Below, in pieces: positions 1 to 15,542 of a DNA stretch of 34,674 nucleotides (positions are counted from its first letter, which is position 1; each line of letters starts with the position of its first letter). Source of the DNA: an uncultured Nitrosospira sp. (lineage in GTDB: Bacteria; Nitrospirota; Nitrospiria; Nitrospirales; Nitrospiraceae). The translations under genes were made by a program, and so were the position numbers. Location of the stretch: assembly GCA_900696505.1 (NCBI GenBank), contig CAADGJ010000026.1, positions 1-34,674 on the forward strand. The letters run 5' to 3'. Under the pieces are notes generated by a model. The model was not told the origin of the DNA, searched no databases, and worked only from the letters and a program-made list of their open reading frames with translations.

Positions 1-153
1 AAATCAAACGGCAGCTGGTGGTACTGGTCGAACCTGGCACCCAATCCCTGGCTCGTCGGCGGATGGGTGCAGGATGTGGTCGAAGTGCGGATCAGGGGGG
101 CGCAGGCCGCGAAAGGGCCATACTTCATCGGCGCGTTCTCGATCCTGGATTAA
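1..153 (+). CDS. C-terminal fragment of an unrecognised protein
   Basis: An open frame enters from the left edge and ends at TAA 151-153, leaving 50 residues. The tail is rich in aromatic residues (a WWYWSNL stretch near its start, then NPWLVGGWV) and finishes with FIGAFSILD. The alternation of glycine, tryptophan and hydrophobic residues looks like a folded domain end rather than noise. I do not recognise the family. The competing plus-strand frame over 18-266 has no protein-like character, so I favour this frame. The start of the gene lies outside the window. Confidence 0.6.
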   Translation, partial: KSNGSWWYWSNLAPNPWLVGGWVQDVVEVRIRGAQAAKGPYFIGAFSILD

Positions 154-154
154 C

Positions 155-170
155 GGCTGTTGATACAGCC
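155..170. terminator. Small hairpin after the first gene
   Basis: Two bases after the stop codon at 153 there is a perfect 6-bp stem (GGCTGT at 155-160, ACAGCC at 165-170) with a TGAT loop. No T-run follows, so it is at best a weak or factor-assisted terminator between convergent genes. The rest of 171-283 shows nothing I can name. Confidence 0.25.
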
Positions 171-283
171 CAGCGGCGGCGTTCCGGCTTCGCTGAGAGG
201 CTCACCATGCGGTATATACACGATCGGCCACTTTTCTCGCCGCGGCCACGCTGGACGGTCTGTTGAAGGGAACGGCTCGACCG

Positions 284-574
284 TCATTCAGGAATTTGCA
301 CCTTGATGCTGAGCGCCTTGCGATCGTCGGTGATCTGGGCCACGATCTTGTCGCCGGTTTTTAATCGTCCGGCCACCACGCCCTCAATTTTCGTCTCAGG
401 CGTCACTTTCAGACGTTCTTCGTGACCGGAGAATTCTTTGACGACGAGTTCGCCCTCTTCCCAATAAAGAACATCGGCCTTGATCACCATGGCGGCAGTG
501 GCCTGGGCCCCCTCTAACGCTGATGCAGGAATGACTGCGGAAAAGAAGAGATAGACTGCGAGAAGAAGTGCCAT
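284..574 (-). CDS. Small exported protein of unknown function
   Basis: A 96-residue protein with a clear signal peptide: a hydrophobic run after the N-terminal Met, then an Ala-Ser-Ala type cleavage region near residue 20. The mature part is about 75 residues with alternating charged and hydrophobic residues (KTGDKIVAQITDD near the end), suggesting a small beta-rich periplasmic domain of the kind that binds or modulates something. The frame also opens at GTG 577, but GGAGG at 582-586 lies 7 bases from ATG 574 and only 4 from the GTG, so ATG 574 is preferred. No family is recognised. It is monocistronic and has its own promoter-like sequence upstream. Confidence 0.7.
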   Translation of the reverse strand: MALLLAVYLFFSAVIPASALEGAQATAAMVIKADVLYWEEGELVVKEFSGHEERLKVTPETKIEGVVAGRLKTGDKIVAQITDDRKALSIKVQIPE

Positions 575-598
575 CACGGATCCTCCCGTTTTTTTCTT

Positions 599-628
599 AG
601 CCTACCGATGATGGCTGCTGGCTGTCAA
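599..628 (-). promoter_or_regulatory. Candidate promoter for the small exported protein
   Basis: On the minus strand a consensus -35 hexamer TTGACA (628-623) is followed after 18 bases by TAGGCT (604-599), which keeps the TA....T frame of a -10 box. The expected start is near 592, just upstream of the ribosome-binding site at 582-586. The rest of the gap up to 848 shows no gene or clear repeat. Confidence 0.45.
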
Positions 629-848
629 TTGATGGATTCTGGGCAGAGAAATCGTCCCTTCATTTACCACTACACCTCTTAACGGCGACCCGCATGTGTC
701 CTCATCGCGCGTCGTCCAAGGAGGGCTTTCTGAAGCCGCGCGTTGCGCGAGGTCCACGATGCGACGAATAAGGAGCATCACGTCTGTGGACGCCGGCGAG
801 GCGGTGAGCCGGCAGTGGTTCCTGACCCGTCAGGCCACTCCGCCCCTT

Positions 849-1742
849 CTAGCACTTCGATCCATCCGTCCGGCATGCCTCCGCACGATCGTTGAACCCT
901 GAATTGCGCAGGCTTTCGTACACATTCTGCTGCCGTTCCATTTCCCGATCGTAGGGAGTCCTTTCCCGCACATCCGGCTGATACCCCCCGCCGAAATTCC
1001 GCCTTGGCTGCCGCTCCGCCAGTACCTTGCGCACCTCGGTTTCATAATAGCCGCGCGTTTGGGGGTCGGGATCTTTCTGGTAGCAGGTGTTCAAGAGCTT
1101 GCGGCCTTCGGCGTCATGTCCCACGGCGTAATGGGCGAATCCGACATTGCAGTAGGCGTTCGGCGTCGCCGGGTCGAGCTTCAGGACAATTTCAGAATCC
1201 TGCAGGGCTTTCTGAAACTGTTCGTGGCGGCTGTAGATTTCGGCGCGGGCTTTGTAGGCGCCGACATGTTTGGGGTCGAAACGGATGGCGGCCGTGAAAT
1301 CGTCGAGGGCTTCGCGGTCCTTCCCTTGATACTCCCGCACGTAGGTCAATCCGCGACCATAGTGCGATTCGGCGCTGGGACGAAGGCGAATCGATGTCGA
1401 ATAGTCGTCCAGGGCCTGCGGTATCTGACCAAGCATCTTGCCGGCCTTGGCGCGGATGAGATAGGCGTCGGCCTTATTCGGCAGGCGGCGAATGACTTCC
1501 GACGCATCCTGCAGTGCCTGCGCGTAGGACACCAGGAAGTAATAACAGCGGGCCCGAGCGAGATAAATACCGGTTTGATTACGTTTTTGTTCGAGTACGT
1601 GGGTGAGAAGGTCGAGGGTGTCTTGGTTGCCCTTGCCGTTGGCTTCGCAGTAGGCATCCACCGAGGCATCGCCACAGGCCACCGCCAGGAGAAGGCCGCA
1701 CAGCGCGACCATACTGCCTACACAACGACCGGCTTGTCCCAT
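849..1742 (-). CDS. TPR-repeat lipoprotein
   Basis: A 297-residue protein with an N-terminal lipoprotein signal (LLLAVAC lipobox at about residues 17-23, counted from the chosen start). It then carries at least four tetratricopeptide repeats, recognisable from blocks such as AYLIRAKAGKMLGQIPQALDDY, SHYGRGLTYV, AYKARAEIYS and AYCNVGFAHYAVG. The C-terminal 60 residues are charged and low in repeat character and end with two cysteines. TPR lipoproteins scaffold protein complexes at the inner or outer membrane; the partner is not visible. ATG 1742 has CGGAGG 5-6 bases upstream, whereas the longer frame to 1784 would use TTG and spoil the signal peptide. It follows the beta-barrel gene by 147 bases on the same strand. 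Confidence 0.88.
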   Translation of the reverse strand: MGQAGRCVGSMVALCGLLLAVACGDASVDAYCEANGKGNQDTLDLLTHVLEQKRNQTGIYLARARCYYFLVSYAQALQDASEVIRRLPNKADAYLIRAKAGKMLGQIPQALDDYSTSIRLRPSAESHYGRGLTYVREYQGKDREALDDFTAAIRFDPKHVGAYKARAEIYSRHEQFQKALQDSEIVLKLDPATPNAYCNVGFAHYAVGHDAEGRKLLNTCYQKDPDPQTRGYYETEVRKVLAERQPRRNFGGGYQPDVRERTPYDREMERQQNVYESLRNSGFNDRAEACRTDGSKC

Positions 1743-1889
1743 GGCCGCCTCCGGAGACGGGCGCATTATCTGCTCGTAGAACAAACCACGTCAAGGCTGT
1801 CATCGCAACTACCACCCCAGAACTGATACGAGGCAACGTGCGGTGGATGGCCCCCCTGATTCGCGTGCCAGGTCAACTGACGAATCGGC

Positions 1890-2654
1890 CTAAAATCCCA
1901 AGGAGACACCAACCGTTCCAAGCAAAGCCGCCCGATTGGCAGGACCGAGAAATTCCGTCCCGAGCCCGCCATCCAGCACAACCCGCGAGGTGAGCTGATG
2001 GCGCAAGCCGATTTCCACACCGGTATGGTTTCGCTCTCCATGAAGATCGGACTGTCTGGTGTAGAGGCTGGCAATCAACGTGTCGCGAAAACTCCCCGGA
2101 TATCCCAGCGGGTAACTGACCGCCGCGACGGCACGGTAGGTGCCGGGCCGCTCCTGTCCTTGCGGAGAGCCGAGCACGGTATACCCGCCATTGAGGTGCA
2201 CCCGCAGCCGCCCGAACGACCGGGTCAGAATCCCGGTCACTTGCGTATCGACGCCCTTCGAATTCACACCGGTCGGCAGATCAGCTTCCACGCGTACCGC
2301 CATGGCCGGCAGGGTCAACGTTTCCGTGTTGAAGTTGTAGAGCAGGCCCAGATGTAGATCCCCGGATTTGTTGGCTCCCACAATTGAATGAGGGTCGGTG
2401 AACAGGTCGCCCTGAATTTCGATTTGCGTGTTGGCGAACGCGCCATAGATGATTTGCGGCTGAAAGGTGACCTGCGTGCGGCCTTCTCGACGATCGTTGA
2501 ATCGCACGCCGCCTTCCAGGCCGATTTCCCCTTTGGGAATGGCATAGGCATCCTCCATCCCGATGGGGCGATTCGGGTCGAGGTTGTCATGGTCTAACGC
2601 CAGAGCGGGCTGGGCCATACCTGCCAGCCATGCGCAGAGCAGCCACCGCATCAT
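1890..2654 (-). CDS. Outer-membrane beta-barrel-like protein
   Basis: A 254-residue protein starting MMRWLLCAWLAG with a signal peptide ending near PALA, followed by LDHDNLDPNRPIG. The mature part consists of alternating hydrophobic and polar strands with many Gly, Tyr and Asn turns (TQIEIQGDLF, LHLGLLYNFNTET, LRVHLNGGYTVLG, TGVEIGLRHQL) and ends in a C-terminal phenylalanine, as outer-membrane barrels do. It resembles the transporter-like barrels annotated as phenol-degradation MetA-pathway proteins, but I cannot assign a substrate. The start is the first of two ATG codons at 2654, 17 bases after the stop of the upstream lipoprotein gene, so the two are probably co-transcribed. The longer frame to 2783 overlaps that gene and is not protein-like. 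Confidence 0.8.
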   Translation of the reverse strand: MMRWLLCAWLAGMAQPALALDHDNLDPNRPIGMEDAYAIPKGEIGLEGGVRFNDRREGRTQVTFQPQIIYGAFANTQIEIQGDLFTDPHSIVGANKSGDLHLGLLYNFNTETLTLPAMAVRVEADLPTGVNSKGVDTQVTGILTRSFGRLRVHLNGGYTVLGSPQGQERPGTYRAVAAVSYPLGYPGSFRDTLIASLYTRQSDLHGERNHTGVEIGLRHQLTSRVVLDGGLGTEFLGPANRAALLGTVGVSLGF

Positions 2655-2671
2655 TCGTGTGCCCGCACTCC

Positions 2672-3625
2672 TCAATGGTGATGCTCCCCGGCCGTCTGGA
2701 CGATCATGGGATTCGTCGCATCCGCCGTCGCCAGGTAATAGGTATTCACGATGCGATAGATTTCCGCCCGCTTCGCCTCCCACGTCGGTAACCGTTCGCT
2801 TGTAAGGATATCGCTGATATTGTCATGCAGCATGTGCAGATTGTCGAAGATATGCGCGACATCCGGATACCGTGCGGCGAACTCGGGGCTCAGTTCCGCG
2901 GTCAACGGCATGAACGTCCACTCCACAGGCGGCTGCTCGAGATACCGGCGATAGGTCGTGAGAATGGGGCGCACCGCTTGGGTTTTTGCCGTCAGGTCGC
3001 GAGCCGCCAGCAACGGATCGTATACCGCGACCTGCAGATAGTGGTACGACCAGATGGTCGCGTTGAAGAGAGGGAACCGCTGCCGGAACGCTTTGGAATA
3101 GGGAAACGAATCCAGGCGGCGGTGGTCCAATTGCTTGGACGTGATGGCGTACGCGCTCTCTTTATAATAGGCCAATACATTCCGGATCGCACGATCCTTG
3201 TCCGGCTCATCCGACACCGCAATGTCATAGGTGGCGCGGTGAAGGGCATGCGCTTCGTCGAACGTGTTCTGCGCGCGCCAGGCCAGCTTCATATAGGTGG
3301 GGGCGATGGCTTCTTCGTTGGGATTCAACCGCGGTCTGGTCGCGATAAACGCAAGGGTTTCCTTGCGCGCCCAATCCTCGATAGCCGCGACATCCTGACC
3401 GCCGGTCAGCAGCAGGTTTTCATACAAATTGGAATGGCCGAAGTCGACCCCATTAAACTCGCTGTCCAGTTCGGCCAGATCTTCCCGGAGCGAAAAATTC
3501 CAGAGGGCACGGTAATAGAACCGCTTGTCGCGCGGCTCAAACTGATTGCACCCGGCCAGCGCGAAGGCGACCGTGGCTATCGCCACGATCGCCATGCTCC
3601 CAAGGATAGTACCGCCAGATTTCAT
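2672..3625 (-). CDS. Lipoprotein of unknown function ending in His-His-His
   Basis: A 317-residue lipoprotein. A hydrophobic segment leads to an ALAGC lipobox, with Asn following the cysteine, which usually sends lipoproteins to the outer membrane. The mature protein looks all-helical, rich in Arg, Tyr and Trp, and has long amphipathic stretches. The last residues are GEHHH, a possible metal-binding tail. I recognise no family. ATG 3625 is preferred over the frame opening at 3682 because it places the signal peptide correctly and starts 25 bases after the DUF4396 gene stop. Sitting between a His-rich membrane protein and a beta-barrel, it may belong to a metal-related envelope system, but that is inference. 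Confidence 0.75.
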   Translation of the reverse strand: MKSGGTILGSMAIVAIATVAFALAGCNQFEPRDKRFYYRALWNFSLREDLAELDSEFNGVDFGHSNLYENLLLTGGQDVAAIEDWARKETLAFIATRPRLNPNEEAIAPTYMKLAWRAQNTFDEAHALHRATYDIAVSDEPDKDRAIRNVLAYYKESAYAITSKQLDHRRLDSFPYSKAFRQRFPLFNATIWSYHYLQVAVYDPLLAARDLTAKTQAVRPILTTYRRYLEQPPVEWTFMPLTAELSPEFAARYPDVAHIFDNLHMLHDNISDILTSERLPTWEAKRAEIYRIVNTYYLATADATNPMIVQTAGEHHH

Positions 3626-3650
3626 GTCGGTCGTTCCAACTCCATAAGCG

Positions 3651-4232
3651 TTAGTGGCAGTGGTGCCCATGCACCAGCGCATGGCCTTTGCCCCGCGCGA
3701 TCAACCAACGGTTGACGGGAAAGGCGGCGATTCCAGCCACGATCAGCGAGAAGCCCAGACTGCCCCAGAACAGCAGGTCAAATATCCCGGCGTCCATCGC
3801 GCCGGGAATGACCATCATGATGGCATTGTCGGCAAGTTCCATGGTCGTCATCGACAACGTATCTGATGCCAGGGCCAACCCCAGCGCCGTTCCCCATGCC
3901 ATACCAGCCCGCCGCAAGGGATAGACGGTCATGGCATAGCCGAAGAAGAACGCCAACGCAATAGCGAGGGCGATCGTAGACCAATTGCCCCAGCCCAGCG
4001 CCGTGCCGATTGCCATTCCGAGCAGTTCGCCGATCGTGCACCCGCTCAAGCAGTGCAAGGTCGCCATGAGCGCCGTGCGGTCGAGCGAGGGTGTCGGATG
4101 CCTCTCTGCACTGTGCGCCTGATGCGGTGCATGGCCATGAGGCTGTGGGCGTTCATGGTCATGATGATGAACCTGACTGTCTGACTCTGCCTGCCGTGGT
4201 ACGGTTGCCGCTGCGGAATGATGATGCCTCAT
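3651..4232 (-). CDS. DUF4396 membrane protein with histidine-rich N-terminus
   Basis: A 193-residue integral membrane protein. The first 45 residues are soluble and loaded with histidine (HHHS, VHHHDHE, HGHAPHQAH). Then comes the DUF4396 signature LHCLSGCTIGELLGMAIG and about four membrane segments, ending in a second His cluster (HALVHGHHCH). His-rich tails of this kind are common in transition-metal transporters and chaperones. DUF4396 proteins have no established biochemical role that I know of, so metal handling is inference. Two ATGs are possible: GGGAGG abuts the one at 4238 but lies 6 bases before the one at 4232, which is therefore preferred. It is the first gene of a three-gene operon and its ribosome-binding site touches a large inverted repeat. 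Confidence 0.85.
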   Translation of the reverse strand: MRHHHSAAATVPRQAESDSQVHHHDHERPQPHGHAPHQAHSAERHPTPSLDRTALMATLHCLSGCTIGELLGMAIGTALGWGNWSTIALAIALAFFFGYAMTVYPLRRAGMAWGTALGLALASDTLSMTTMELADNAIMMVIPGAMDAGIFDLLFWGSLGFSLIVAGIAAFPVNRWLIARGKGHALVHGHHCH

Positions 4233-4243
4233 GCGCATCCTCC

Positions 4244-4278
4244 CTGTAAGTGGTGACTGATACCGTGCACCACTACAG
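4244..4278 (-). promoter_or_regulatory. Long inverted repeat abutting the DUF4396 ribosome-binding site
   Basis: The arms CTGTAAGTGGTG (4244-4255) and CACCACTACAG (4268-4278) are complementary over 11 pairs with one extra A; the spacer is 12 bases. On the minus strand the second arm runs directly into GGGAGG, the ribosome-binding site. It could be a repressor or activator site, or a leader hairpin controlling translation. The remainder of 4279-4516, between divergent genes, shows no further element I can name. Confidence 0.5.
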
Positions 4279-4516
4279 ACGGAAAAAGGCGGAAATCATT
4301 ACAGGGACGAAAGGACACCAGTTCGCAGGGGGTGCGGACTGAATCACCCATCTCGTCGCTCTCACTGATTGTTCGAATACGTGTATTTCTGACTCATTGA
4401 ATCCCCTCCTGCTGTTTGCTTTTGCGACAACGCGGGAAAAAGTCTTGATCTCAACCTTGGAGACATGCTTGACTGAACGCTGTTCCGCATTCTTCTCAGT
4501 TTACTGGAGGGTTTGC

Positions 4517-5023
4517 ATGCCGAGTGGAATCCATCGCACTCTCTATACGCTCTTCTTTCTCCTCCTCGCTCCCCTGACCACTCAAGCCGCCGACCTACCT
4601 GATACCAGCCTCACGCCTCTCAAATTTCTGGTCGGAGAATGGAAAGGGACGGATGCGGACGGGAAAGCTCACAAGAGCGCCTTCACCCTGAGCTCCGGCG
4701 GCACGACCCTCACCGAAGTCCTCACGCCTCCTGATAGCCCCCCGATGACGACCATGTACTACAGCGACGGCGACCAACTGATGCTGACGCATTATTGCTC
4801 GCTCGATAACCAACCGCGCATGCGCGCCGCCGCGGTCAAAGACGGAGATAAGACCATCACGTTTTCTTTCGTGGATGCGACGAATCTCAAGAATCCGACC
4901 GATGTGCACATGCATCAGCTGGCCATCGACGTCAAAGACCACGACCATTTCACCCAAACCTGGACCTTGAGCAAGGCTGGAAAGGACGTGCCGAAGGTGT
5001 TTACCTTTGAGCGCGTCAAATAG
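4517..5023 (+). CDS. Small exported protein, possible lipocalin-like fold
   Basis: A 168-residue protein with a signal peptide (hydrophobic run TLYTLFFLLLAPL, cleavage after TQAA near residue 25). The mature domain begins with LKFLVGEWKGTD, a motif seen at the start of DUF1579-like and other lipocalin or heme-binding-like beta-barrels, followed by strands with TTLTEVLTP, MTTMYYSDGDQLMLTHYC and FTQTWTLSKAGKD. The function is unknown; binding a small hydrophobic ligand is plausible from the fold. ATG 4517 has TGGAGG 6 bases upstream and gives the signal peptide; the 40 residues upstream in the frame (from 4397) are not protein-like. The methyltransferase gene follows 33 bases later, so the two may be co-transcribed. 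Confidence 0.8.
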   Translation: MPSGIHRTLYTLFFLLLAPLTTQAADLPDTSLTPLKFLVGEWKGTDADGKAHKSAFTLSSGGTTLTEVLTPPDSPPMTTMYYSDGDQLMLTHYCSLDNQPRMRAAAVKDGDKTITFSFVDATNLKNPTDVHMHQLAIDVKDHDHFTQTWTLSKAGKDVPKVFTFERVK

Positions 5024-5056
5024 CTTTCACGTCGTGGATCAACAAGGAGCCTCCCG

Positions 5057-5914
5057 ATGCCATCACAAACGCCAGCAGCCGTGATCGAAACCCAGCGTGA
5101 GGATTGGAACCGCGTCGCCGCCGGCTGGGATAAATGGGATCAGTTCTTCAATCGCACGATGGCCTTCATCAATCACCGGCTGGTGGCGGATGCGCGTATT
5201 CGTCCGGGGCTTCGGGTATTGGACTTGGGGTCCGGGACCGGGTATCCGGCGATCTTGGCCGGTGAAGTGGTGGGAGCTGACGGAACGGTGGTTGGAATGG
5301 ATCTCGCCGAATCGATGCTGGCCGTGGCGACACGCAAGGCAAAGACGCTCGGCCTGCACCAGGTCAGCTTCCGAACCGGAGACGTGACGTCATTGCCGTT
5401 CGACTCCGGCTCGATCGATTCGATCATCAGTCGATTCTGTTTGATGTTCCTCCCGGAAATTCCCAAAGCCACAGCGGAAATCGCCCGCGTGCTGAAGCCG
5501 GGAGGATACGTCGCGGCCGCCGTCTGGTCGAGCCCCGACAACAATCCGTTCATTCGTATTCCAATGGACGTGATCAAAACCATCCTGCCGCTGCCGCCGC
5601 CGGACCCTGAGGCGCCGGGGATATTCCGCCTTGCGCGTCCGGGCGACCTGGCCGGCATGTTCGAGCGCGCCGGTCTCACGGTGCTGGACGACGAGGAGTT
5701 TACGGCCGAAGTGACCTATACGACTGCAGAAGAATTTTTTCGCGGGCTGATGGATATTGCCGCACCGATCCAAAACCTCTTTGCCAAACTGACCCCGGCC
5801 CAACAAACCGAGGCGGAGCGCGGGATCATCAAAACGGTAAACGAGTATAAACGAGCAGAAGGCGTGTCGTTGCCGATTGCCGTGCGGATTGTGAGTGCGC
5901 GCAAGCCGAAGTAG
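5057..5914 (+). CDS. Class I SAM-dependent methyltransferase
   Basis: A 285-residue Rossmann-fold methyltransferase of the UbiE/COQ5-like type. Motif I is LDLGSGTGYPAILAG (about residues 55-70), followed by an acidic residue in VVGMDLAESML that would bind the ribose of SAM, a GDVTSLPF stretch and the post-motif IARVLKPGGYVAAAVW. The C-terminal 110 residues probably close the substrate pocket. The methyl acceptor cannot be read from the sequence. AAGGAG lies 8 bases before ATG 5057. It follows the small exported protein closely and is ended by a strong hairpin at 5922-5975. Confidence 0.88.
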   Translation: MPSQTPAAVIETQREDWNRVAAGWDKWDQFFNRTMAFINHRLVADARIRPGLRVLDLGSGTGYPAILAGEVVGADGTVVGMDLAESMLAVATRKAKTLGLHQVSFRTGDVTSLPFDSGSIDSIISRFCLMFLPEIPKATAEIARVLKPGGYVAAAVWSSPDNNPFIRIPMDVIKTILPLPPPDPEAPGIFRLARPGDLAGMFERAGLTVLDDEEFTAEVTYTTAEEFFRGLMDIAAPIQNLFAKLTPAQQTEAERGIIKTVNEYKRAEGVSLPIAVRIVSARKPK

Positions 5915-5921
5915 AACGATA

Positions 5922-5975
5922 AGTGAGGGCGCCTGCCCGCGACTTGTGTGTGTCACGGGCGGGCGCCGCACTCTT
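5922..5975. terminator. Bidirectional hairpin terminator
   Basis: GGCGCCTGCCCG (5928-5939) pairs with CGGGCGGGCGCC (5956-5967) over 12 positions with one G-T pair; AGTG (5922-5925) and CACT (5969-5972) extend the stem across a small internal loop. It lies between convergent genes ending at 5914 and 5982. CTCTT follows on the plus strand, a weak T-tract, so it can serve both sides. Confidence 0.7.
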
Positions 5976-5981
5976 CTAAAT

Positions 5982-6260
5982 CTAGTCCGTGGCTTTTTCT
6001 TTTAATTGCTTCATCTTTCCCTTCGCCCGCTCCTTGGCCCCCTTCATCTTGCCCTTGGCCCGCTCCACTTCGGCCTTCGTATCATTCCCTTTCAGTTCTT
6101 CATTCATGGCCTTGGTTTCGCCCTTCATCTCTTCCACATTACCCTTCATGTCACCTTTGGCCTTCTCCATCTTGGCTTTGGTCTCACTCGCATCCGCCGA
6201 GAAAACCAGTGCCGTCGAGAAACACACTACTACCGCCGCGACTGTCATGAATGTACGCAT
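5982..6260 (-). CDS. Exported lysine-rich amphipathic helical protein
   Basis: A 92-residue protein with a signal peptide (MRTFMTVAAVVVCFSTALVF, cleavage near SADA) and a mature part made almost wholly of Lys, Glu, Met, Ala and Gly in a loose 11-residue repeat: KMEKAKGDMKG, VEEMKGETKAM, VERAKGKMKGA, KERAKGKMKQL. This pattern resembles CsbD-like and LEA-type stress proteins and apolipoprotein-like helices, which would lie along membranes or stay disordered. The function is unknown; a periplasmic stress role is a guess. CGGAGG sits 6 bases before ATG 6260. Plus-strand open frames over the same bases arise from its skewed codons and should be ignored. Confidence 0.78.
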   Translation of the reverse strand: MRTFMTVAAVVVCFSTALVFSADASETKAKMEKAKGDMKGNVEEMKGETKAMNEELKGNDTKAEVERAKGKMKGAKERAKGKMKQLKEKATD

Positions 6261-6460
6261 ATCCGTCCTCCGAGTATAGGTGAACCGCTGTCACTAATCT
6301 GCGGGATCCGTCTGCATCCCCCCACTAGAGAATCCCCTAGTATCGGGATGAATCCGTCCCCCGCTACTGCCCAGGGTTCCCCCCAGTTGAACCACTGCGC
6401 AGGCCGCGACACACTCGTGTAGACAGCCTGTGCCTTCATGTCTCAGAAAGGAGCCAGCTC

Positions 6461-6895
6461 ATGCGACACCTCATTCTTTCCGGCCTCCTGGGCTTCGTGA
6501 TCCTCACGACCAGCGGATGCAGTTATCTGTTCTATCCTCACGCCAAGGAGTTTACGGAGAAGGCGAAGGGTGGAAACACGGTTGAGACGCTGATCAACCT
6601 GACGAATATGATGGAGGCATCTGCGAAGGCCGGACAGCAAGGCAAAGGCAAAGACCAGGCGCTTGATGATCTGCACAATCAGCTGCACGCGTTTAACAAC
6701 ACGATTTGCTGTGTCGACAAGAATAAGCAGGAAACGCCGGCCTATGCCCTGGCGGTCACGCACAATAAGGAACTCTGGGCGATTTTCAAGCGGGTCTGGA
6801 AGTTCAAGGATGATCAACCCCAACGCAGCCAGCATTTGGAGCTGTTTGTCACAGAAGTGAGGGAACTCCGGGAGTCACTCCAAGCATTGAAATGA
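6461..6895 (+). CDS. Small lipoprotein of unknown function
   Basis: A 144-residue lipoprotein: MRHLILSGLLGFVILTTSGC gives a lipobox with Cys at residue 20 followed by Ser. The mature part is helical, with NTVETLINLTNMMEAS, a KGKDQALDDLHNQLHAF helix, a CC pair in TICCVDKNKQE and a charged C-terminal helix. I recognise no domain. GAAAGGAG lies 6-7 bases before ATG 6461. It stands alone, divergent from the lysine-rich protein, and 165 bases separate it from the TfoX gene. That gap shows no clear element. Confidence 0.75.
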   Translation: MRHLILSGLLGFVILTTSGCSYLFYPHAKEFTEKAKGGNTVETLINLTNMMEASAKAGQQGKGKDQALDDLHNQLHAFNNTICCVDKNKQETPAYALAVTHNKELWAIFKRVWKFKDDQPQRSQHLELFVTEVRELRESLQALK

Positions 6896-7060
6896 AGGCC
6901 GGAATGTTGCACAGTGCGCCACGGCGGGGAACCAGCCTTGCTGACTCTCCGCCGGTGCAACGTTCACGATGCTCGCGCGGATCGTGAGACTGCCCCTGTC
7001 GAATCGACTGGTGAAGGCAGTCCATGTCCACGCGGCGAGCGTCGAAAGGGTCTCTGGCGC

Positions 7061-7429
7061 ATGCGTCCCGACAGTTTCAAAGACTTCGTGGTGGACCAAC
7101 TTGGTGAGATCCCGCAATTGATGTGCAAAGCCATGTTCGGCGGGCACGGTCTCTATCAGCGCGAGACGTTCTTTGGCATCATTCACAAAGGCCGGCTCTA
7201 CATGAAGACAAACGGGATGACACAATCGGCCTATACCGCGCGAGGCATGCAGCCGTTTCGCCCAAACGGCAAGCAACTCCTCAGACATTATTACGAAGTA
7301 CCGGTGGATATTCTGGAAGATGCCGAGCAGTTGACGGATTGGGCGCTTCGGGCCATTACCCCACCGACGGCGCAATTGATTCTTCCCTTTCACGACAATT
7401 CGATCAAGGACGTTCTCACGCACATGTGA
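7061..7429 (+). CDS. TfoX N-terminal-domain protein
   Basis: A 122-residue protein made only of the TfoX/Sxy N-terminal domain, recognised from FVVDQLGEIPQLMCKAMFGGHGLY and FFGIIHKGRLYMKTN. Full-length TfoX/Sxy regulators in gammaproteobacteria add a helix-hairpin-helix-like C-terminal domain that is absent here, so a competence role should not be assumed. ATG 7061 begins exactly at the domain start (RPDSFKDF); the open frame further upstream is not protein-like. No strong ribosome-binding site precedes it (AAAGGG about 12 bases away). Its TGA overlaps the next ATG by one base, so the two are translationally coupled. Confidence 0.82.
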   Translation: MRPDSFKDFVVDQLGEIPQLMCKAMFGGHGLYQRETFFGIIHKGRLYMKTNGMTQSAYTARGMQPFRPNGKQLLRHYYEVPVDILEDAEQLTDWALRAITPPTAQLILPFHDNSIKDVLTHM

Positions 7430-8435: not shown

Positions 8436-9020
8436 CTATCGGATCGGTTCGTTTTTTGAGGAGGTCATCACCAGTGCCAGGCAACCCTGCTCACTGGACG
8501 TGACGGGATGGACGGTGCCCGCCTCCGCCCGATGGTAATCCCCGACTTGCAGGAACTCTCCGGCGCAGAGACAGCTCCCCTCCAGCACATAGAACTCTTC
8601 GACTTGCGAGTGGCGGTGGCCGATCAGCGTGCCACCGGGCGCCAACCTGAGTAACATGGTCGTGCGTGCACCGGCGGCATCGTGAAACAACACCTTCATC
8701 GAGAGACCCGGTGCCAATTCCTGCCACGACACGTCCCGGCTTCTGACGAAGCTGAACCCGGTGCCTTCATCCTGCTCCTGCGGTTCCTGTGCAATTCGCG
8801 CCATGAGCCGCGCCTTGAGGGAAGCCGGCGGCGCAATGGCAGGACCGCTGAACGCCAGCTCCTGCACCACGTCTTGAAATGACGCAACCTCGTCCTTCGT
8901 GGACGCCGAGGCTGTCTCCAGCGAACGTGCGAACTGCCGCTGTGCGTCGTCGCCAAGCGCCTCCAAGGCATAGAGCGCAGCGAGTTCCGTCACGTCTTCT
9001 TCGCGTCGAGGATCGGTCAT
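8436..9020 (-). CDS. Cupin-domain anti-sigma factor
   Basis: A 194-residue soluble protein. Residues 1-80 resemble the anti-sigma domain of RskA/ChrR-type proteins (ELAALYALEALGDDAQRQFAR), and residues about 100-190 form a cupin barrel with GGTLIGHRHSQVEEFYVLEGS, the His/His/Glu metal-ligand motif. In ChrR an equivalent cupin domain senses singlet oxygen or peroxides and a zinc-holding HxxxCxxC motif clamps the sigma factor. Here I find no HxxxCxxC in the N-terminal part, so the release mechanism must differ. Its ATG overlaps the sigma factor stop (ATGA), the usual arrangement for a sigma/anti-sigma pair. No membrane segment is present. Confidence 0.85.
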   Translation of the reverse strand: MTDPRREEDVTELAALYALEALGDDAQRQFARSLETASASTKDEVASFQDVVQELAFSGPAIAPPASLKARLMARIAQEPQEQDEGTGFSFVRSRDVSWQELAPGLSMKVLFHDAAGARTTMLLRLAPGGTLIGHRHSQVEEFYVLEGSCLCAGEFLQVGDYHRAEAGTVHPVTSSEQGCLALVMTSSKNEPIR

Positions 9021-9622
9021 GACAACAACCCTTCCCCGTGGGGCGCGAGCACTTCGCGCAACTTGATCATGCCCAGTCTTATCCGCGTCTTCACCGTCCC
9101 CAGCGGGAGCTTCAACTGCTCGGCAATTTCACTCTGACTCATGCCCCAGTAATAGGCCAGGGCAATCGCCTGACGCTGCTCCGCGGAGAGCGTCGCGAGC
9201 GCGTCCTGCACCAATCGTTGCCGTTCCAGCCCCGCGCTGTATTGCTCCGGCGTGTCGCCGCATCCCGGTAATTCGGCGGCTTGCTCGAGCGGCACCTGCC
9301 GGCCCCGCTCTAAATAACTGCTGCGAAACCGGTCGATGGCGCGATGCTTGGCCAGCGTCATCAACCAACTACCCGGCGTGCCCCGCTCCGCGTCATACGT
9401 CGAAATGCGTCGCCAGACCTGCGTGTAGACATCCAGGGTCGTCTCTTCGGCTGCCGCATGATCGCCGAGAATCTTCATCGCCAGGCCGAAGACCTTTGCA
9501 CTACTGGCATCATACAGCTCGGCCAGTGCGGATTGATCTCCCACGGCAATACGCGCGAGAAGTCCCGCCCACTCCTGTTCGTGAATCGATGGTGCGTTGG
9601 CCACGGTCTGGGTGTCACACAT
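9017..9622 (-). CDS. ECF RNA polymerase sigma factor
   Basis: A 201-residue sigma-70 family protein with region 2 (residues about 25-95: ALAELYDASSAKVFGLAMKI, then YTQVWRRISTYD and GSWLMTLAKHRAIDRFR) and region 4 (about 140-195: LSAEQRQAIALAYYWGMSQSEIAEQLKLPLGTVKTRIRLGMIKLRE). It is of the RpoE/SigK type. It would redirect polymerase to stress promoters, held back by the cupin anti-sigma factor encoded directly after it. ATG 9622 has GAGGA about 6 bases upstream; the frame continues to 9853 but the added residues are not protein-like. The gene is divergent from the truncated haemoglobin across 222 bases. Confidence 0.93.
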   Translation of the reverse strand: MCDTQTVANAPSIHEQEWAGLLARIAVGDQSALAELYDASSAKVFGLAMKILGDHAAAEETTLDVYTQVWRRISTYDAERGTPGSWLMTLAKHRAIDRFRSSYLERGRQVPLEQAAELPGCGDTPEQYSAGLERQRLVQDALATLSAEQRQAIALAYYWGMSQSEIAEQLKLPLGTVKTRIRLGMIKLREVLAPHGEGLLS

Positions 9623-9844
9623 GGGGTGTCCTCGTGACGTTCTACGAGCGCACCCGTTCGTTTGGATGTTCAATCTCCGGCCGATTCGGCGGAACTGTAG
9701 CACCGGGACCACCGGGGCGCAACGGCACTTTTTGTCGCGCCGTAGATCCAATTGCGCTCGGCCTTCGTAATCACAGACAGAGCAGCCGGTTGGGGAAACC
9801 ATGAATCCGGCTCGCCACACAGATCTTAACCAGGAGGAACCATC

Positions 9845-10321
9845 ATGTCTCATCGTCTTGCGTCGCTTGCCATGATTCTCGGTCTCGCGCTAACGGTCTC
9901 AGCCTGCAACAGCATGGGCTCACCGTCGGCTGGGACTGCCGCAACGGAGAAATCGCTCTATGACCGTTTGGGCGGCAAAACCGCCATCACCGCCGTCGTC
10001 GATGACTTTGTCGGACGTGTCGCAGGCGATACCCGCATCAACGGCAAATTCGCCAACGCCAACATCCCCCGGCTGAAATCCATGCTGGTCGATCAGATTT
10101 GCCAAGCCTCTGGCGGACCCTGCACCTACACCGGCCGCGATATGAAGAGCACGCATGCGGGCATGGGCGTCAGCAGCAGCGATTTCGATGCGCTGGTCGG
10201 CGATCTCGTCGCGACGCTAAACAAGTTTAAGGTGCCGGAACGTGAGAAGAACGAGTTGCTGGGTGCGCTCGGCCCGATGAAAGAGGGTATCGTCGAAAAG
10301 CCGATGGCCTCGATGCAGTAG
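9845..10321 (+). CDS. Group 1 truncated haemoglobin, lipoprotein
   Basis: A 158-residue globin with an N-terminal lipoprotein signal: LALTVSAC places the acylated Cys at residue 21, followed by Asn, suggesting the outer membrane. The 2/2 globin begins at SLYDRLGG (residue 37) and has the YTGRDMKSTHAGMG block whose His104 is the proximal haem ligand. The B10 tyrosine usual in group 1 globins is replaced: DDFVGRV has Val56 after the Phe. Binding of O2, NO or a redox function in the periplasm is plausible; the ligand is unknown. AGGAGG lies 7 bases before the ATG. Its divergence from the sigma operon suggests, but does not prove, control by that sigma factor. Confidence 0.9.
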   Translation: MSHRLASLAMILGLALTVSACNSMGSPSAGTAATEKSLYDRLGGKTAITAVVDDFVGRVAGDTRINGKFANANIPRLKSMLVDQICQASGGPCTYTGRDMKSTHAGMGVSSSDFDALVGDLVATLNKFKVPEREKNELLGALGPMKEGIVEKPMASMQ

Positions 10322-10578: not shown

Positions 10579-10604
10579 AGTTGCCTGGAACGAAAAGGAA
10601 CCAT

Positions 10605-11792
10605 ATGGCAATAGACGACATCACACAGAAAGTCAGCGACCGTTACGCCCGCGCCGCCGCGACCGGCGAGCAGATGTGCTGTCCGACGGGGTACAACTTT
10701 GAAGATCTGCGCTCGTTCATTCCGGATGCCGTTCTGAAAATTTCCTACGGGTGCGGCACTCCGGCAGGGTTAGACACGGTGCAGACCGGTGAAACCGTGC
10801 TGGATATCGGATCTGGTGGAGGAATTGATTGCTTCGAAGCCGCGCGTCGCGTCGGCCCCACCGGGCACGTGATTGGCGTCGACATGACTGATACCATGCT
10901 GGAGATTGCTCGCCAGCATGCCCCCATCGTCTCCGGCAATCTCGGGTTCCCCCGACCGAACACTGAGTTTCGAAAGGGCATGGCCGATGCGATGCCGGTG
11001 GAGGACGCCAGCATCGACCTCATCATCTCCAACTGCGTGATCAACCTGGCGCCTGACAAGCGCAAGGTCTTTCGCGAGATGTACCGCGTCCTAAAACCCG
11101 GCGGGCGCTTCACGATCTCCGATATCGTGTCGGATCAAGTCGTTCCACAATACATGGTCCACGATTCCGCCAAGTGGGGTGACTGCCTCTCCGGATCCTT
11201 GCAGGTCCAGGACTACATCGGCGGGATGGTCGATGCAGGGTTTCGCGCCGTGCACCAGATCAAGTCGGGCGCTTGGCAGTCGATCGACGGCGTGCATTTT
11301 CTCTCCGTCACCCTGACCGGGTACAAACTCTCCGAGGCGGTCACACAAGAGGCCCCGTTGTATGCGACCCTCTGCGGACCGTTTTCCACCGTGACTGACG
11401 AATTGGGCCAACAGTACCGACGTGGCGTGCCGCAGCTCCTCGATGCGAAGCCTGCACAACTGTTGCGGAGTGCGCCGCTGCGCTCGCTGTTTCTGATCGG
11501 TCCGGCCCCGATCACCCTCGCGGCGGGCGACCCGCGCTGGTGCGCTATCCTTCCGGAGCAGACACCCTGCGTCTGGCAGGGCGCCTATGCCATTCTCACA
11601 GGGCCCATCATCGCCGCCGAGGACGACGATCATCATCAATACTATCGAGGAGTGCCGCTGGAAATCTGCTCTAAAACCCAGCACGTCCTGACACAGGACG
11701 CCTACCGACCTCATTTCACCATCTACCATCGAAGCGCGAATGTCGTAGACGGCGAAGCGGTCAGTTGTTCGCCTGAAGGGACTTGCTGCTGA
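10605..11792 (+). CDS. arsM: ArsM-like SAM methyltransferase with extra C-terminal region
   Basis: A 395-residue protein. Residues 1-250 are an ArsM-type methyltransferase: CCPTGYN (Cys25, Cys26), SYGCGTPAG, SAM motif LDIGSGGGIDCFEA (66-79), GVDMTDTMLEIA, ISNCVINLAPDK (Cys144) and WGDCLSGSL (Cys194). Cys144 and Cys194 are 50 residues apart, as are Cys174 and Cys224 of the algal enzyme CmArsM. No Cys stands at the position of CmArsM Cys72. Residues about 265-395 form an extra region ending CSPEGTCC that I do not recognise. ATG 10605 has AAGGA 6 bases upstream. Its TGA overlaps the arsR start, so repressor and enzyme are co-translated. Calling it an arsenic methyltransferase rests on motifs and on the arsR and arsS neighbours. 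Confidence 0.82.
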   Translation: MAIDDITQKVSDRYARAAATGEQMCCPTGYNFEDLRSFIPDAVLKISYGCGTPAGLDTVQTGETVLDIGSGGGIDCFEAARRVGPTGHVIGVDMTDTMLEIARQHAPIVSGNLGFPRPNTEFRKGMADAMPVEDASIDLIISNCVINLAPDKRKVFREMYRVLKPGGRFTISDIVSDQVVPQYMVHDSAKWGDCLSGSLQVQDYIGGMVDAGFRAVHQIKSGAWQSIDGVHFLSVTLTGYKLSEAVTQEAPLYATLCGPFSTVTDELGQQYRRGVPQLLDAKPAQLLRSAPLRSLFLIGPAPITLAAGDPRWCAILPEQTPCVWQGAYAILTGPIIAAEDDDHHQYYRGVPLEICSKTQHVLTQDAYRPHFTIYHRSANVVDGEAVSCSPEGTCC

Positions 11793-12148
11793 TGCCACGC
11801 CACGGCGTCGCCAATCTCACGACCCCCCGTCAGTGTGCCGCGATCTTGAAGGCTATCGGGGATGAGACCAGGCTCCGCATATTAGAATCCCTCCTCTTGG
11901 GCGAAAAATGTGTGACCGATCTCACGCACGTTCTTCGTTATTCCCAGCCGCATGTCTCCCATCACCTGCGGATTCTGCGTGATGCCGGATTGGTGGAAGG
12001 ACATCGGCACGGCAAACAAGTCTGTTACCGGGTGGAACCGACCGTGCAACGCGCGCTGAAAAATCGTGGTGAACAGGTACTGGACTTCGGATGTTGCGAA
12101 TTGCGATTTCCCACCTCGACCTTACTCACGCTGCAGCAAAAACATTGA
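11792..12148 (+). CDS. arsR: ArsR-family metalloregulator
   Basis: A 118-residue winged-helix repressor: AAILKAIGDETRLRILESLL at the N-terminus, recognition helix YSQPHVSHHLRILRDAGLV (about 50-68), and the wing VEGHRHGKQVCYRV. The classical CVC metal box in the first DNA-binding helix is reduced to one Cys (KCVTDL, Cys40). A vicinal pair Cys101-Cys102 near the C-terminus (FGCCEL) resembles the C-terminal arsenite site of the Acidithiobacillus ferrooxidans repressor. It should repress this operon until As(III) binds. ATG 11792 overlaps the preceding TGA; TTG 11783 is an alternative start. Confidence 0.92.
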   Translation: MPRHGVANLTTPRQCAAILKAIGDETRLRILESLLLGEKCVTDLTHVLRYSQPHVSHHLRILRDAGLVEGHRHGKQVCYRVEPTVQRALKNRGEQVLDFGCCELRFPTSTLLTLQQKH

Positions 12149-12199
12149 AACCGGAATGCAGACGATGAACATACTCCATAGTACTTGGAATGACTCTCC

Positions 12200-13237
12200 A
12201 TGGCACTGACACTGGTCGGCCAACATAAACCCCTCGCCTCCTCTGCCGAGCAGCTGAAGGTACTGGCAGAGATCGGGTCCTGCTTGCCATTTGAGGAACA
12301 GCTTCGGCGAAGCGGCCTGTCGCCACTCCACGCGACCGGCATCACGGTGCTCCAAATCAACGTGGGAAAGCTTTGCAATCAAACCTGCCGTCATTGCCAC
12401 GTGGACGCGGGGCCCGACCGAACGGAACGCATGTCCCGGGAGACAGCCGAGCAGTGCATCGCGGCCTTGGCCATGACCGACATTCCCACCGTCGACATCA
12501 CTGGAGGCGCACCGGAACTGAACCCCCATTTCCGCTGGTTGGTCGAGCAGGCCCGTACCCTGAATCGCCATGTCATGGATCGCTGCAATCTGTCGGTGCT
12601 GCTGTTGCCCTCGCAGGCGGATCTGGCGACCTTTCTCGCGGCGCACCAGGTGGAGATCGTCGCGTCACTGCCCTATTACCGTGCCGCGCAAACTGACGCG
12701 CAACGCGGCGAAGGCATTTTCGAGAAGTCCATTGAAGCCCTGCAGCTCCTCAATAGCCTCGGCTACGGACGCGAAGGCAGCGGATTGATCGTGAATCTCG
12801 TGCACAATCCGGTCGGCGCCTTCCTGCCCGCCAAACAGGAGGCCATTGAAGCGCAATTCCGGAAGGAGCTCCGCACCAAGCATGGCGTGGAATTCAACCA
12901 CCTCTATACCATCACCAACATGCCGGTCAGCCGATTCCTCGAATTCCTGGTAGAGAGCGGCAACTATCTGGGGTACATGGAGCGGCTTGCGAATGCGTAC
13001 AATCCCGCCGCCGCCGGCAGCGTGATGTGCCGCTATACACTCTCGGTCGGCTGGGACGGCATGCTCTACGATTGCGACTTCAACCAGATGCTGGACCTTC
13101 CGGTGCAGCACGATGCCCCTGCGCACATCCGGGACTTTGACCCTGCCCGACTTCATCACCGGCAGATTACCACTCGCAATCATTGTTACGGCTGCACGGC
13201 CGGCGCGGGATCGTCGTGCGGTGGGACGGTGACCTAA
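12200..13237 (+). CDS. arsS: Arsenosugar biosynthesis radical SAM protein ArsS
   Basis: A 345-residue radical SAM enzyme. The cluster motif is CNQTCRHC (Cys59, Cys63, Cys66), and the C-terminal half has the DUF3641-type region with MCRYTLSVGWDGMLYDCDFNQ and the terminal CYGCTAGAGSSCGG. This architecture identifies ArsS, which together with ArsM makes oxo-arsenosugars in cyanobacteria by joining a 5'-deoxyadenosyl group from SAM to dimethylarsenite. Some family members are selenoproteins; this one uses Cys at the motif and ends in an ordinary TAA. It lies 51 bases after arsR, with only a weak ribosome-binding site (GGAA about 10 bases away). Its presence converts a simple arsenic methylation operon into a probable organoarsenical pathway. 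Confidence 0.9.
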   Translation: MALTLVGQHKPLASSAEQLKVLAEIGSCLPFEEQLRRSGLSPLHATGITVLQINVGKLCNQTCRHCHVDAGPDRTERMSRETAEQCIAALAMTDIPTVDITGGAPELNPHFRWLVEQARTLNRHVMDRCNLSVLLLPSQADLATFLAAHQVEIVASLPYYRAAQTDAQRGEGIFEKSIEALQLLNSLGYGREGSGLIVNLVHNPVGAFLPAKQEAIEAQFRKELRTKHGVEFNHLYTITNMPVSRFLEFLVESGNYLGYMERLANAYNPAAAGSVMCRYTLSVGWDGMLYDCDFNQMLDLPVQHDAPAHIRDFDPARLHHRQITTRNHCYGCTAGAGSSCGGTVT

Positions 13238-14657: not shown

Positions 14658-15482
14658 CTAGCTCTTACTTACCGGTTTCGTAGCCCGGATGAATGCACTC
14701 ATGAACTTGCCGTCCACTTCAGCCACAAGTTGGTCACTGGAGAGATCTCCGCCGATCAACAACTCCTTCACGTCTCCGGCCTGGTAGATGCGCGTCGGTT
14801 CGATTCCGATCTCGGTAAAACCCGCCTGCCGCAACAAATCCCCATACTGCGTCTCTTCCAGCGCCCCCGCCACGCAACCAGCCCACAATTCCAGATTCTT
14901 TCGGATCTCCGATGGTACCGCCCCTCGCACGACAATATCGGACAACGCCAGGCGCCCTCCCGGTCGCAGAACGCGAAACGCTTCCGCCAACACACGTTCT
15001 TTTTCCCCGGACAAATTCACCACGCAGTTGCTGATGATCACATCCACAGACCCGTCGGGCAGCGGGATGTTTTCGATTTCGCCCTTCAGAAACTCGACAT
15101 TCTCCACACCGGCCGTACGCTGATTTTCTCTGGCCAACGCCAGCATCTCGTCAGTCATATCAAGTCCATACGCCTTGCCTTTCGGTCCGACTCGCTTGGC
15201 GGAGAGCAACACATCGATTCCCCCGCCGGATCCGAGGTCCAACACAGTTTCGCCGTCCTGAAGTTCCGCCAGTGCCGTGGGATTCCCGCAACCGAGCGAC
15301 GCTGCAACGGCATCTGCCGGTACCCCCTGGCACTCCTGATCCGAATACAGGTTGGATGTAATCGGGTCGACATTCATTAACGCCGGGGCAGCCCCGCAGC
15401 AGGAACTGCCTCCGGTTTTCGCCCGTGCCGCTGCTTCACCATACTTTTCCTTAATTAACTCTCGAATCGCTTGGGCATCCAT
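14658..15482 (-). CDS. arsM: Arsenite methyltransferase ArsM
   Basis: A 274-residue canonical ArsM. It has SSCCG (Cys28, Cys29), QECQG (Cys51), SLGCGNPTA (Cys65), SAM motif LDLGSGGGIDVLLSA (81-95), ISNCVVNLS (Cys153) and WAGCVAGAL (Cys203). Spacings Cys51-Cys153 (102) and Cys153-Cys203 (50) match CmArsM Cys72, Cys174 and Cys224, the set that holds As(III). It methylates arsenite with SAM to mono- and dimethyl products, which may feed ArsS. GAGGAG lies 8 bases before ATG 15482, and the residues upstream in the frame are not protein-like. It is transcribed towards pit and away from hflK, so it has its own promoter. Confidence 0.95.
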   Translation of the reverse strand: MDAQAIRELIKEKYGEAAARAKTGGSSCCGAAPALMNVDPITSNLYSDQECQGVPADAVAASLGCGNPTALAELQDGETVLDLGSGGGIDVLLSAKRVGPKGKAYGLDMTDEMLALARENQRTAGVENVEFLKGEIENIPLPDGSVDVIISNCVVNLSGEKERVLAEAFRVLRPGGRLALSDIVVRGAVPSEIRKNLELWAGCVAGALEETQYGDLLRQAGFTEIGIEPTRIYQAGDVKELLIGGDLSSDQLVAEVDGKFMSAFIRATKPVSKS

Positions 15483-15512
15483 TTCGGCATCTCCTCTTTG
15501 CATCACACTTAT

Positions 15513-15522
15513 TGATATATCA
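15513..15522. promoter_or_regulatory. Palindrome upstream of the second arsM
   Basis: TGATATATCA is a perfect 10-bp palindrome 30 bases before the arsM start, in an AT-rich patch that could be the -10 region. It differs from the 10563 palindrome, so if ArsR binds here its specificity must be relaxed, or another regulator is involved. Confidence 0.35.
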
Positions 15523-15542
15523 GACACACTTACACTCAACAT

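What the first reader, a model, noticed from the sequence alone, without database searches (positions are those of the whole stretch)
1890..4278. His-rich DUF4396 / His-tailed lipoprotein / beta-barrel operon, a possible undescribed envelope metal system
Three closely spaced genes (gaps 25 and 17 bases) encode an inner-membrane DUF4396 protein with His clusters at both ends, an outer-membrane-type lipoprotein ending HHH, and a beta-barrel. Together they cover all layers of the envelope. His-rich tails suggest Ni, Co, Zn or Cu binding. I know of no described system with this set.
Basis: partly seen in the sequence, partly recalled or inferred. Interest (0 to 1): 0.6.

Follow-up and report, generated by a model that had tools for sequence, protein, structure and literature searches.

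The report
Undescribed copper-response envelope operon, Nitrospira
Three neighbouring genes in a nitrifying Nitrospira bacterium look like part of its copper-stress response: they share a dedicated genetic switch with known copper-export genes, and two of them form a widespread but undescribed pair that probably handles copper in the cell's outer envelope.

Summary
The three genes, the 25- and 17-base gaps and the His-rich ends are real. The conserved core is the lipoprotein + barrel pair (LIP-BAR), adjacent in 77 of 80 loci from many phyla; the other 3 are cut by contig ends. DUF4396 is a Nitrospira addition, decayed or gone in some relatives. LIP has no Pfam, NCBIfam or PDB-sequence match, six histidines invariant in 53 homologues, and a confident all-helical AlphaFold2 model without a clear PDB match. 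In distant genomes LIP-BAR sits beside Cu-ATPases far above chance (12 of 27 loci, 0.24 expected). In Nitrospira the operon starts with an ECF-type promoter (TGTAA-N16-CCGTCT). In seven relatives a CorE-type ECF sigma, a class with a copper-sensing member, lies directly upstream. The same promoter precedes CopZ-type chaperone genes in ten searched genomes, and one relative has sigma-promoter-copZ-cupredoxin-copA-LIP-BAR in a row. Best reading: DUF4396-LIP-BAR is the envelope arm of a CorE-type copper regulon. Metal identity, LIP chemistry and transport direction are inferred. The window's own, incomplete genome kept the promoter, but no CorE-type sigma was found there.

The parts
4277..4303 (-). 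CorE-type ECF promoter of the operon: TGTAATGATTTCCGCCTTTTTCCGTCT (-35 TGTAAT, -10 region CGTCTG)
   Evidence: Conserved in relatives; single match in the window, 0 in 100 shuffles; fixed spacing; same element before copZ-copA
3651..4232 (-). DUF4396 inner-membrane protein, 4 predicted helices, His-rich N- and C-terminal ends, HCxxGC motif in helix 1 (alternative start 4238)
   Evidence: PF14342 E 5.9e-42; alignment with Ensifer, Streptomyces, Kineococcus and archaeal members; weak AlphaFold2 model, pLDDT 64
2672..3625 (-). LIP: lipoprotein of an undescribed helical family, six invariant His, C-terminal EHHH
   Evidence: Lipobox; no Pfam or NCBIfam match; invariant His; AlphaFold2 pLDDT 93, pTM 0.89
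1890..2654 (-). BAR: outer-membrane beta-barrel (PF13557), partner of LIP
   Evidence: PF13557 above its cut-off; C-terminal Phe in 72 of 75 homologues; next to LIP in 77 of 80 loci

Best explanation
DUF4396-LIP-BAR is the envelope arm of a CorE-type copper-stress regulon. Proposed chain: excess copper activates a CorE-type ECF sigma factor through its Cys-rich tail (inferred from homology). The sigma factor transcribes copZ-cupredoxin-copA and DUF4396-LIP-BAR from the same kind of promoter (shared promoter shown by sequence, activity inferred). CopA pumps Cu(I) out of the cytoplasm (known family function). LIP, anchored on the periplasmic face of the outer membrane, binds or processes copper with its invariant histidines and His tail (inferred). 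BAR passes copper or a copper-loaded ligand across the outer membrane (inferred; direction unknown, export or sequestration more likely if the regulon answers excess). DUF4396, with His-rich ends predicted to be cytoplasmic and an HCxxGC motif in a membrane helix, is a lineage-specific inner-membrane metal-handling addition (inferred).
For: Promoter TGTAA-N16-CCGTCT before the operon in 21 of 27 Nitrospira genomes searched, with the spacing invariant in 16 of 16 exact matches in the loci examined. The same element precedes CopZ-like genes in ten of those genomes. A CorE-type sigma (CXC linker motif + CGxCxxHGCLxCxCE tail) lies directly upstream of the operon in seven relatives and of copZ-cupredoxin in others, with decayed copies elsewhere. 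L073 has sigma-promoter-copZ-cupredoxin-copA-LIP-BAR in a row. CorE of Myxococcus needs copper to bind DNA and controls copA, copB, cuoB and an HMA protein (PMC3107203). Cu-ATPases lie near LIP-BAR in 12 of 27 genomes against 0.24 expected. Six invariant His in LIP, and His/Met-rich tails in distant members.
Against: No expression or metal-binding data. No CorE-type sigma was found in the window's genome (89% complete) or in G014, and several Nitrospira LIP-BAR loci have no such promoter (L047, L050, L053, L059, L066, L068). CorE2, the sister of CorE, responds to Cd/Zn (PMC8999054), and MerR regulators near some loci score nearest to Zn/Cd/Pb/Hg types. His proximity in the LIP model could not be measured. 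The main Nitrospira copy has no copper pump next to it.
Confidence: 0.68

Rival explanations
1. Same kind of regulon, but for Zn/Cd/Co or a mixed soft-metal response: a CorE2-like sigma drives a general heavy-metal envelope defence, and LIP-BAR binds and exports divalent cations.
For: CorE2 responds to Cd/Zn and CRD cysteine layout sets specificity (PMC8999054). The Nitrospira tail has five Cys, whereas CorE's CRD has six (PMC3107203). His-rich tails also suit Zn or Ni. MerR regulators near L105 and L135 score best to Zn/Cd/Pb/Hg models, below cut-offs. An RND pump near L079 is of the CusA/CzcA family.
Against: The co-regulated genes are CopZ-like, cupredoxin and TIGR01511 Cu-ATPase, and the Met/His tails of distant LIPs resemble copper-binding tails.
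Confidence: 0.17
2. A copper-uptake or cuproenzyme-maturation module: LIP and BAR bring copper in or deliver it to periplasmic enzymes, as proposed for PcoB/CopB in comammox Nitrospira.
For: Nitrifiers can be copper-limited (PMC13374858). Some distant LIP proteins carry a fused CxxC domain that resembles, by eye only, NosL-type copper chaperones; Pfam gave no match for it.
Against: Co-regulation with copZ/copA, which are export genes, by a sigma type that is activated by excess metal. Loci carry efflux ATPases and RND pumps.
Confidence: 0.07
3. In the window's own lineage the operon has become a relic or been rewired: sigma lost, promoter silent or read by another sigma, with LIP-BAR kept for an unrelated envelope task.
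For: The sigma gene is decayed or absent at many loci, DUF4396 is degraded in some (G006, G016), and some LIP-BAR loci have no motif. No CorE-type sigma was found in G000 or G014.
Against: The promoter keeps its spacing and sequence where the sigma is gone, and where DUF4396 is lost it lies directly before LIP (L055, L060, L142). All six His are kept in the window protein.
Confidence: 0.08

Closest known systems
CorE regulon of Myxococcus xanthus (former ECF44, now ECF238; PMC3107203, PMC8999054)
   Same: ECF sigma with CXC linker motif and C-terminal Cys-rich tail, encoded beside copper genes; targets include a P1B Cu-ATPase and an HMA protein
   Different: The Nitrospira tail has five Cys (CGxCxxHGCLxCxCE) rather than six; the target set includes DUF4396-LIP-BAR instead of the multicopper oxidase CuoB; metal response untested
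PcoA-PcoB / CopA-CopB (Pseudomonas-type periplasmic copper protein + outer-membrane barrel)
   Same: Adjacent genes for a periplasmic copper-handling protein and an outer-membrane beta-barrel
   Different: LIP has no multicopper-oxidase domain and BAR matches PF13557, not a CopB model; LIP is all-helical and a lipoprotein in Nitrospira
DUF4396 (PF14342)
   Same: The first gene is a clear member; the HCxxGC motif and, in bacteria, a GKGHAxVHxHH-type tail are shared with Ensifer, Streptomyces and Kineococcus
   Different: The family has no assigned function; the only paper found (PMC7760498) mentions it at the flank of a copper/heavy-metal island in Acidihalobacter; here it precedes LIP-BAR
Phenol_MetA_deg outer-membrane family (PF13557)
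   Same: BAR passes the family threshold
   Different: Several distant BARs score below it, and the partner LIP is not a known companion of that family

Membership tests
DUF4396 (PF14342) | Match to the Pfam model above its cut-off | tested here: met
   143.8 bits against 27, residues 55-185
CorE-type ECF regulon | Sigma factor with sigma2 and sigma4 regions, CXC motif in the linker and Cys-rich C-terminal tail beside the operon (in relatives) | tested here: met
   Sigma70_r2 and r4_2 in L140 and L135; CAC/CTC in the linker and CGxCxxHGCLxCxCE at the end; directly upstream of the operon in seven relatives
CorE-type ECF regulon | Such a sigma factor present in the window's own genome | tested here: not met
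   None at E 1e-15 or 1e-5 with two queries; the genome is 89% complete, so absence is not proven
CorE-type ECF regulon | Common promoter element shared with copper genes | tested here: met
   TGTAA-N16-CCGTCT before the operon and before CopZ-like genes
CorE-type ECF regulon | Copper-dependent activation of the sigma factor and the promoter | not testable with these tools
   Needs transcription and DNA-binding assays
PcoA-PcoB / CopA-CopB | Multicopper-oxidase domains in the periplasmic partner | tested here: not met
   No such Pfam or NCBIfam match in LIP or its homologues
PcoA-PcoB / CopA-CopB | CopB-family model in the outer-membrane partner | tested here: not met
   BAR matches only PF13557 and, weakly, Porin_4 at E up to 1
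Outer-membrane beta-barrel | Signal peptide, barrel-family match and C-terminal aromatic residue | tested here: met
   PF13557 above cut-off; Phe last in 72 of 75; signal peptide by inspection
LIP, any family with a solved structure | Clear structural match | tested here: inconclusive
   Foldseek best E 0.11; VIA-align best Z 4.4 (rmsd 5.6, 127 aligned), within the range of unrelated helical proteins
Bacterial lipoprotein | N-terminal lipobox | tested here: met
   LAGC-N in the window; similar boxes in most Nitrospira LIPs but not in cyanobacterial or armatimonad members

The most novel reading that the evidence does not exclude
LIP founds a new class of copper protein: a helical bundle with a multi-histidine (possibly binuclear, type-3-like) copper site, built from one or two invariant His on each of four long helices, acting as a periplasmic copper oxidase or store coupled to a dedicated outer-membrane channel, spread over about nine phyla and unrelated to the Pco/Cus/Cue proteins.
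Probability: 0.2. Interest if true: 0.85.

Novelty: new variant of a known kind. Interest (0 to 1): 0.62.

Why it matters
It gives a function hypothesis for a protein pair found in about nine phyla (Nitrospirota, Desulfobacterota, Methylomirabilota, Cyanobacteria, Armatimonadota, Gemmatimonadota, Acidobacteriota and others) whose lipoprotein has no Pfam, NCBIfam or PDB-sequence match here. It also points to an unstudied outer-envelope copper route in nitrifiers, whose activity in water treatment depends on copper (PMC13374858). The promoter makes it directly testable by copper-induction measurements.

Tried and rejected
Three-gene set as the conserved unit: rejected, since no DUF4396 was found at the distant loci that LIP brought in. 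Identity from LIP sequence: Pfam, NCBIfam and PDB profile searches gave only chance-level hits. Identity from LIP fold: no clear match, which does not show that the fold is new. DUF4396 model: pLDDT 64, too weak for a fold search. DUF4396 plasmid contexts: one strong metal cluster (Kineococcus), one four-helix copper-binding neighbour (Streptomyces clavifer), one plastocyanin-like gene nearby (Haloarcula), the rest unrelated or unannotated, so DUF4396 alone is weak evidence. The ECF/ChrR-like pair in the window (9853-8436) was considered as the regulator, but it is of another type (ChrR cupin anti-sigma) and nothing ties it to this promoter. Motif spacings N15 and N17 gave only scattered, non-shared sites. 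The exact N16 pattern also hits roughly a dozen sites without an evident copper gene in the 27 genomes, about the level of the reversed-pattern control, so the pattern alone is not a regulon predictor; its shared position before lip and copZ is the evidence.

Full report
OBSERVATION. The window is a contig of a Nitrospira MAG (G000:C26; closest named relatives are Nitrospira). Three minus-strand genes lie at 4238/4232-3651 (DUF4396), 3625-2672 (LIP) and 2654-1890 (BAR), with gaps of 25 and 17 bases. DUF4396 is a clear PF14342 member, LIP has no family, and BAR passes the PF13557 threshold. BAR, like 72 of 75 homologues, ends in Phe, the usual outer-membrane barrel signature (general knowledge). 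LIP has a lipobox, LAGC-N. The His-rich termini are real and recur in orthologues. DUF4396 more likely starts at 4232: GGAGG stands six bases before that ATG, and orthologues begin there.

THE CONSERVED UNIT IS LIP-BAR. In 29 genomes of the genus, LIP and BAR each occur in 27 and DUF4396 in 17, plus degraded remnants in G006 and G016. A scan of 84,980 species gave 107 LIP relatives, of which 80 were kept. BAR is the adjacent gene in 77, once in reversed order, and the other three are cut by contig ends. By record title they include Nitrospirota, Deltaproteobacteria, Methylomirabilota, Elusimicrobia, Gemmatimonadetes, Cyanobacteria, Armatimonadetes, Zixibacteria and Acidobacteria, at about 32-49% identity. 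Plasmids of Methylobacterium and Gemmatirosa carry LIP too. No DUF4396 homologue was found at those distant loci.

WHAT LIP LOOKS LIKE. In 53 homologues 24 core positions are invariant and six of them are His: H64, H126, H129, H195, H264, H267 (hypergeometric p 6e-6). They sit in motifs GH..YE, FDWAHxLH, YHWLQ and FDNLHMLHD. AlphaFold2 gives pLDDT 93 and pTM 0.89, nearly all helix. The six His fall within four long helices (51-74, 116-137, 185-200, 254-275). Foldseek and VIA-align found no clear PDB relative. Distant members add His/Met-rich tails, such as HHSMPGMNHNNSMPNMNHD in Chroococcus, or a CHHC...CxxC domain. The Nitrospira EHHH looks like a short version of that tail.

NEIGHBOURHOODS. 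Clustering neighbours in 40 distant loci gave YtkA-like proteins (17 loci), P-type copper ATPases (13), DUF2231 (8), RND membrane-fusion proteins (7), MerR (7), RND pumps (4), DUF305 (4) and CsoR-type repressors (3). Counting TIGR01511 copies in 27 of these genomes, chance predicts 0.24 loci with a Cu-ATPase in the fetched stretch; 12 were seen. If the 12 are collapsed to five lineages the tail probability is still 3e-6, although relatedness makes such figures rough. A second LIP-BAR copy in G003, G021 and G024 lies among P-type ATPases and membrane-fusion proteins; in G003 it is near a cupredoxin-CopA fusion and a MerR regulator.

REGULATION, THE STRONGEST EVIDENCE. Upstream of DUF4396 lies TGTAATGATTTCCGCCTTTTTCCGTCT (window 4303-4277), conserved in relatives. 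The pattern TGTAA-N16-CCGTCT occurs once in the window, with 0 in 100 shuffles. In loci L042-L080 there are 16 matches at this spacing and none at the eight other spacings tested. In eight genomes it hit the operon in all eight; the only other N16 site, in G024, precedes a CopZ-like HMA gene followed by a cupredoxin. In 19 further genomes it hit the operon (or LIP directly) in 13 and CopZ-like genes in nine. An ECF sigma factor lies directly upstream of the operon in L054, L061, L063, L067, L076, L140 and G004. The promoter lies between the sigma gene and the operon in six of these, with one mismatch in L067; it was not found in L076. Decayed sigma copies remain in N. defluvii (L045), G024, L055 and L060. 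The same type precedes copZ in G003, G005, G011, G021, G024 and L073. This sigma has a CXC linker motif and ends CGxCxxHGCLxCxCE, the two signatures given for CorE-like sigmas (PMC8999054). [quoted passage not shown] In L073 the order is sigma - promoter - copZ - cupredoxin - copA - LIP - BAR. Where DUF4396 is absent (L055, L060, L142) the promoter sits directly before LIP. Beside a CorE-like paralogue in G005, a similar site precedes a 61-residue Cys-rich ORF that looks like a metallothionein.

MECHANISM. Shown by sequence: the conserved gene pair, the shared promoter, a CorE-type sigma beside it in relatives, and the invariant His. Inferred: copper as the signal, LIP as a periplasmic copper-binding or copper-processing lipoprotein, BAR as its outer-membrane channel, DUF4396 as an inner-membrane accessory with cytoplasmic His-rich ends (topology from the positive-inside rule). 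It works like PcoA-PcoB or the oxidase/outer-membrane part of the CorE regulon, but it is not a member of those families: neither a multicopper-oxidase domain nor a CopB model was found.

LIMITS. No CorE-type sigma was found in the window's genome or in G014, so the promoter may be read by another sigma, or the gene may lie in the missing tenth of the assembly. CorE2 responds to Cd/Zn, so the metal is not settled. Some Nitrospira have LIP-BAR without the promoter. The exact pattern also has background hits, about as many as its reversed control. DUF4396 contexts elsewhere are mixed. The literature search covered only open-access full text; one paper mentions DUF4396 (PMC7760498), and a search of papers on copper in Nitrospira did not show LIP or BAR.

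Noticed in passing
L213 1500-1750 (G005:C15:88373 region): A CorE-like sigma paralogue is followed by a similar promoter element and a 61-residue ORF with about a dozen cysteines, metallothionein-like.
   Followed up: partly
window 10581-13237 and 14658-15542: Two methyltransferases of arsenite-methyltransferase look, an ArsR-type repressor and a radical-SAM protein stand together: a possible arsenic methylation or arsenosugar cluster (by eye, not tested).
   Followed up: no
window 8436-9853: ECF sigma factor and ChrR-cupin anti-sigma pair, apparently unrelated to the operon's promoter.
   Followed up: partly
L107 5839-7461; L093 5863-7509: Some distant LIP proteins carry a fused C-terminal CxxC...CxxC domain similar by eye to a separate upstream gene (L107 5323-5835); resembles NosL-type copper chaperones, but Pfam gave no match.
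   Followed up: partly
L145 (Kineococcus pKRAD01) 1-6584; L105 9378-10373: DUF4396 sits with DUF305, a metal-sensing regulator, an HMA protein, a metal ATPase and an F510_1955-type glycosylhydrolase; an ORF that looks similar to the last lies near LIP-BAR in Chroococcus.
   Followed up: no
L138 (G187) 5774-7246: A diverged LIP without a detected BAR lies near a copper ATPase in another Nitrospiraceae genome.
   Followed up: no
L122 11980-14335 (Methylobacterium fujisawaense plasmid): A very divergent LIP (28% identity) and a following hypothetical gene sit on a mobilizable plasmid, with no annotated copper genes nearby.
   Followed up: no
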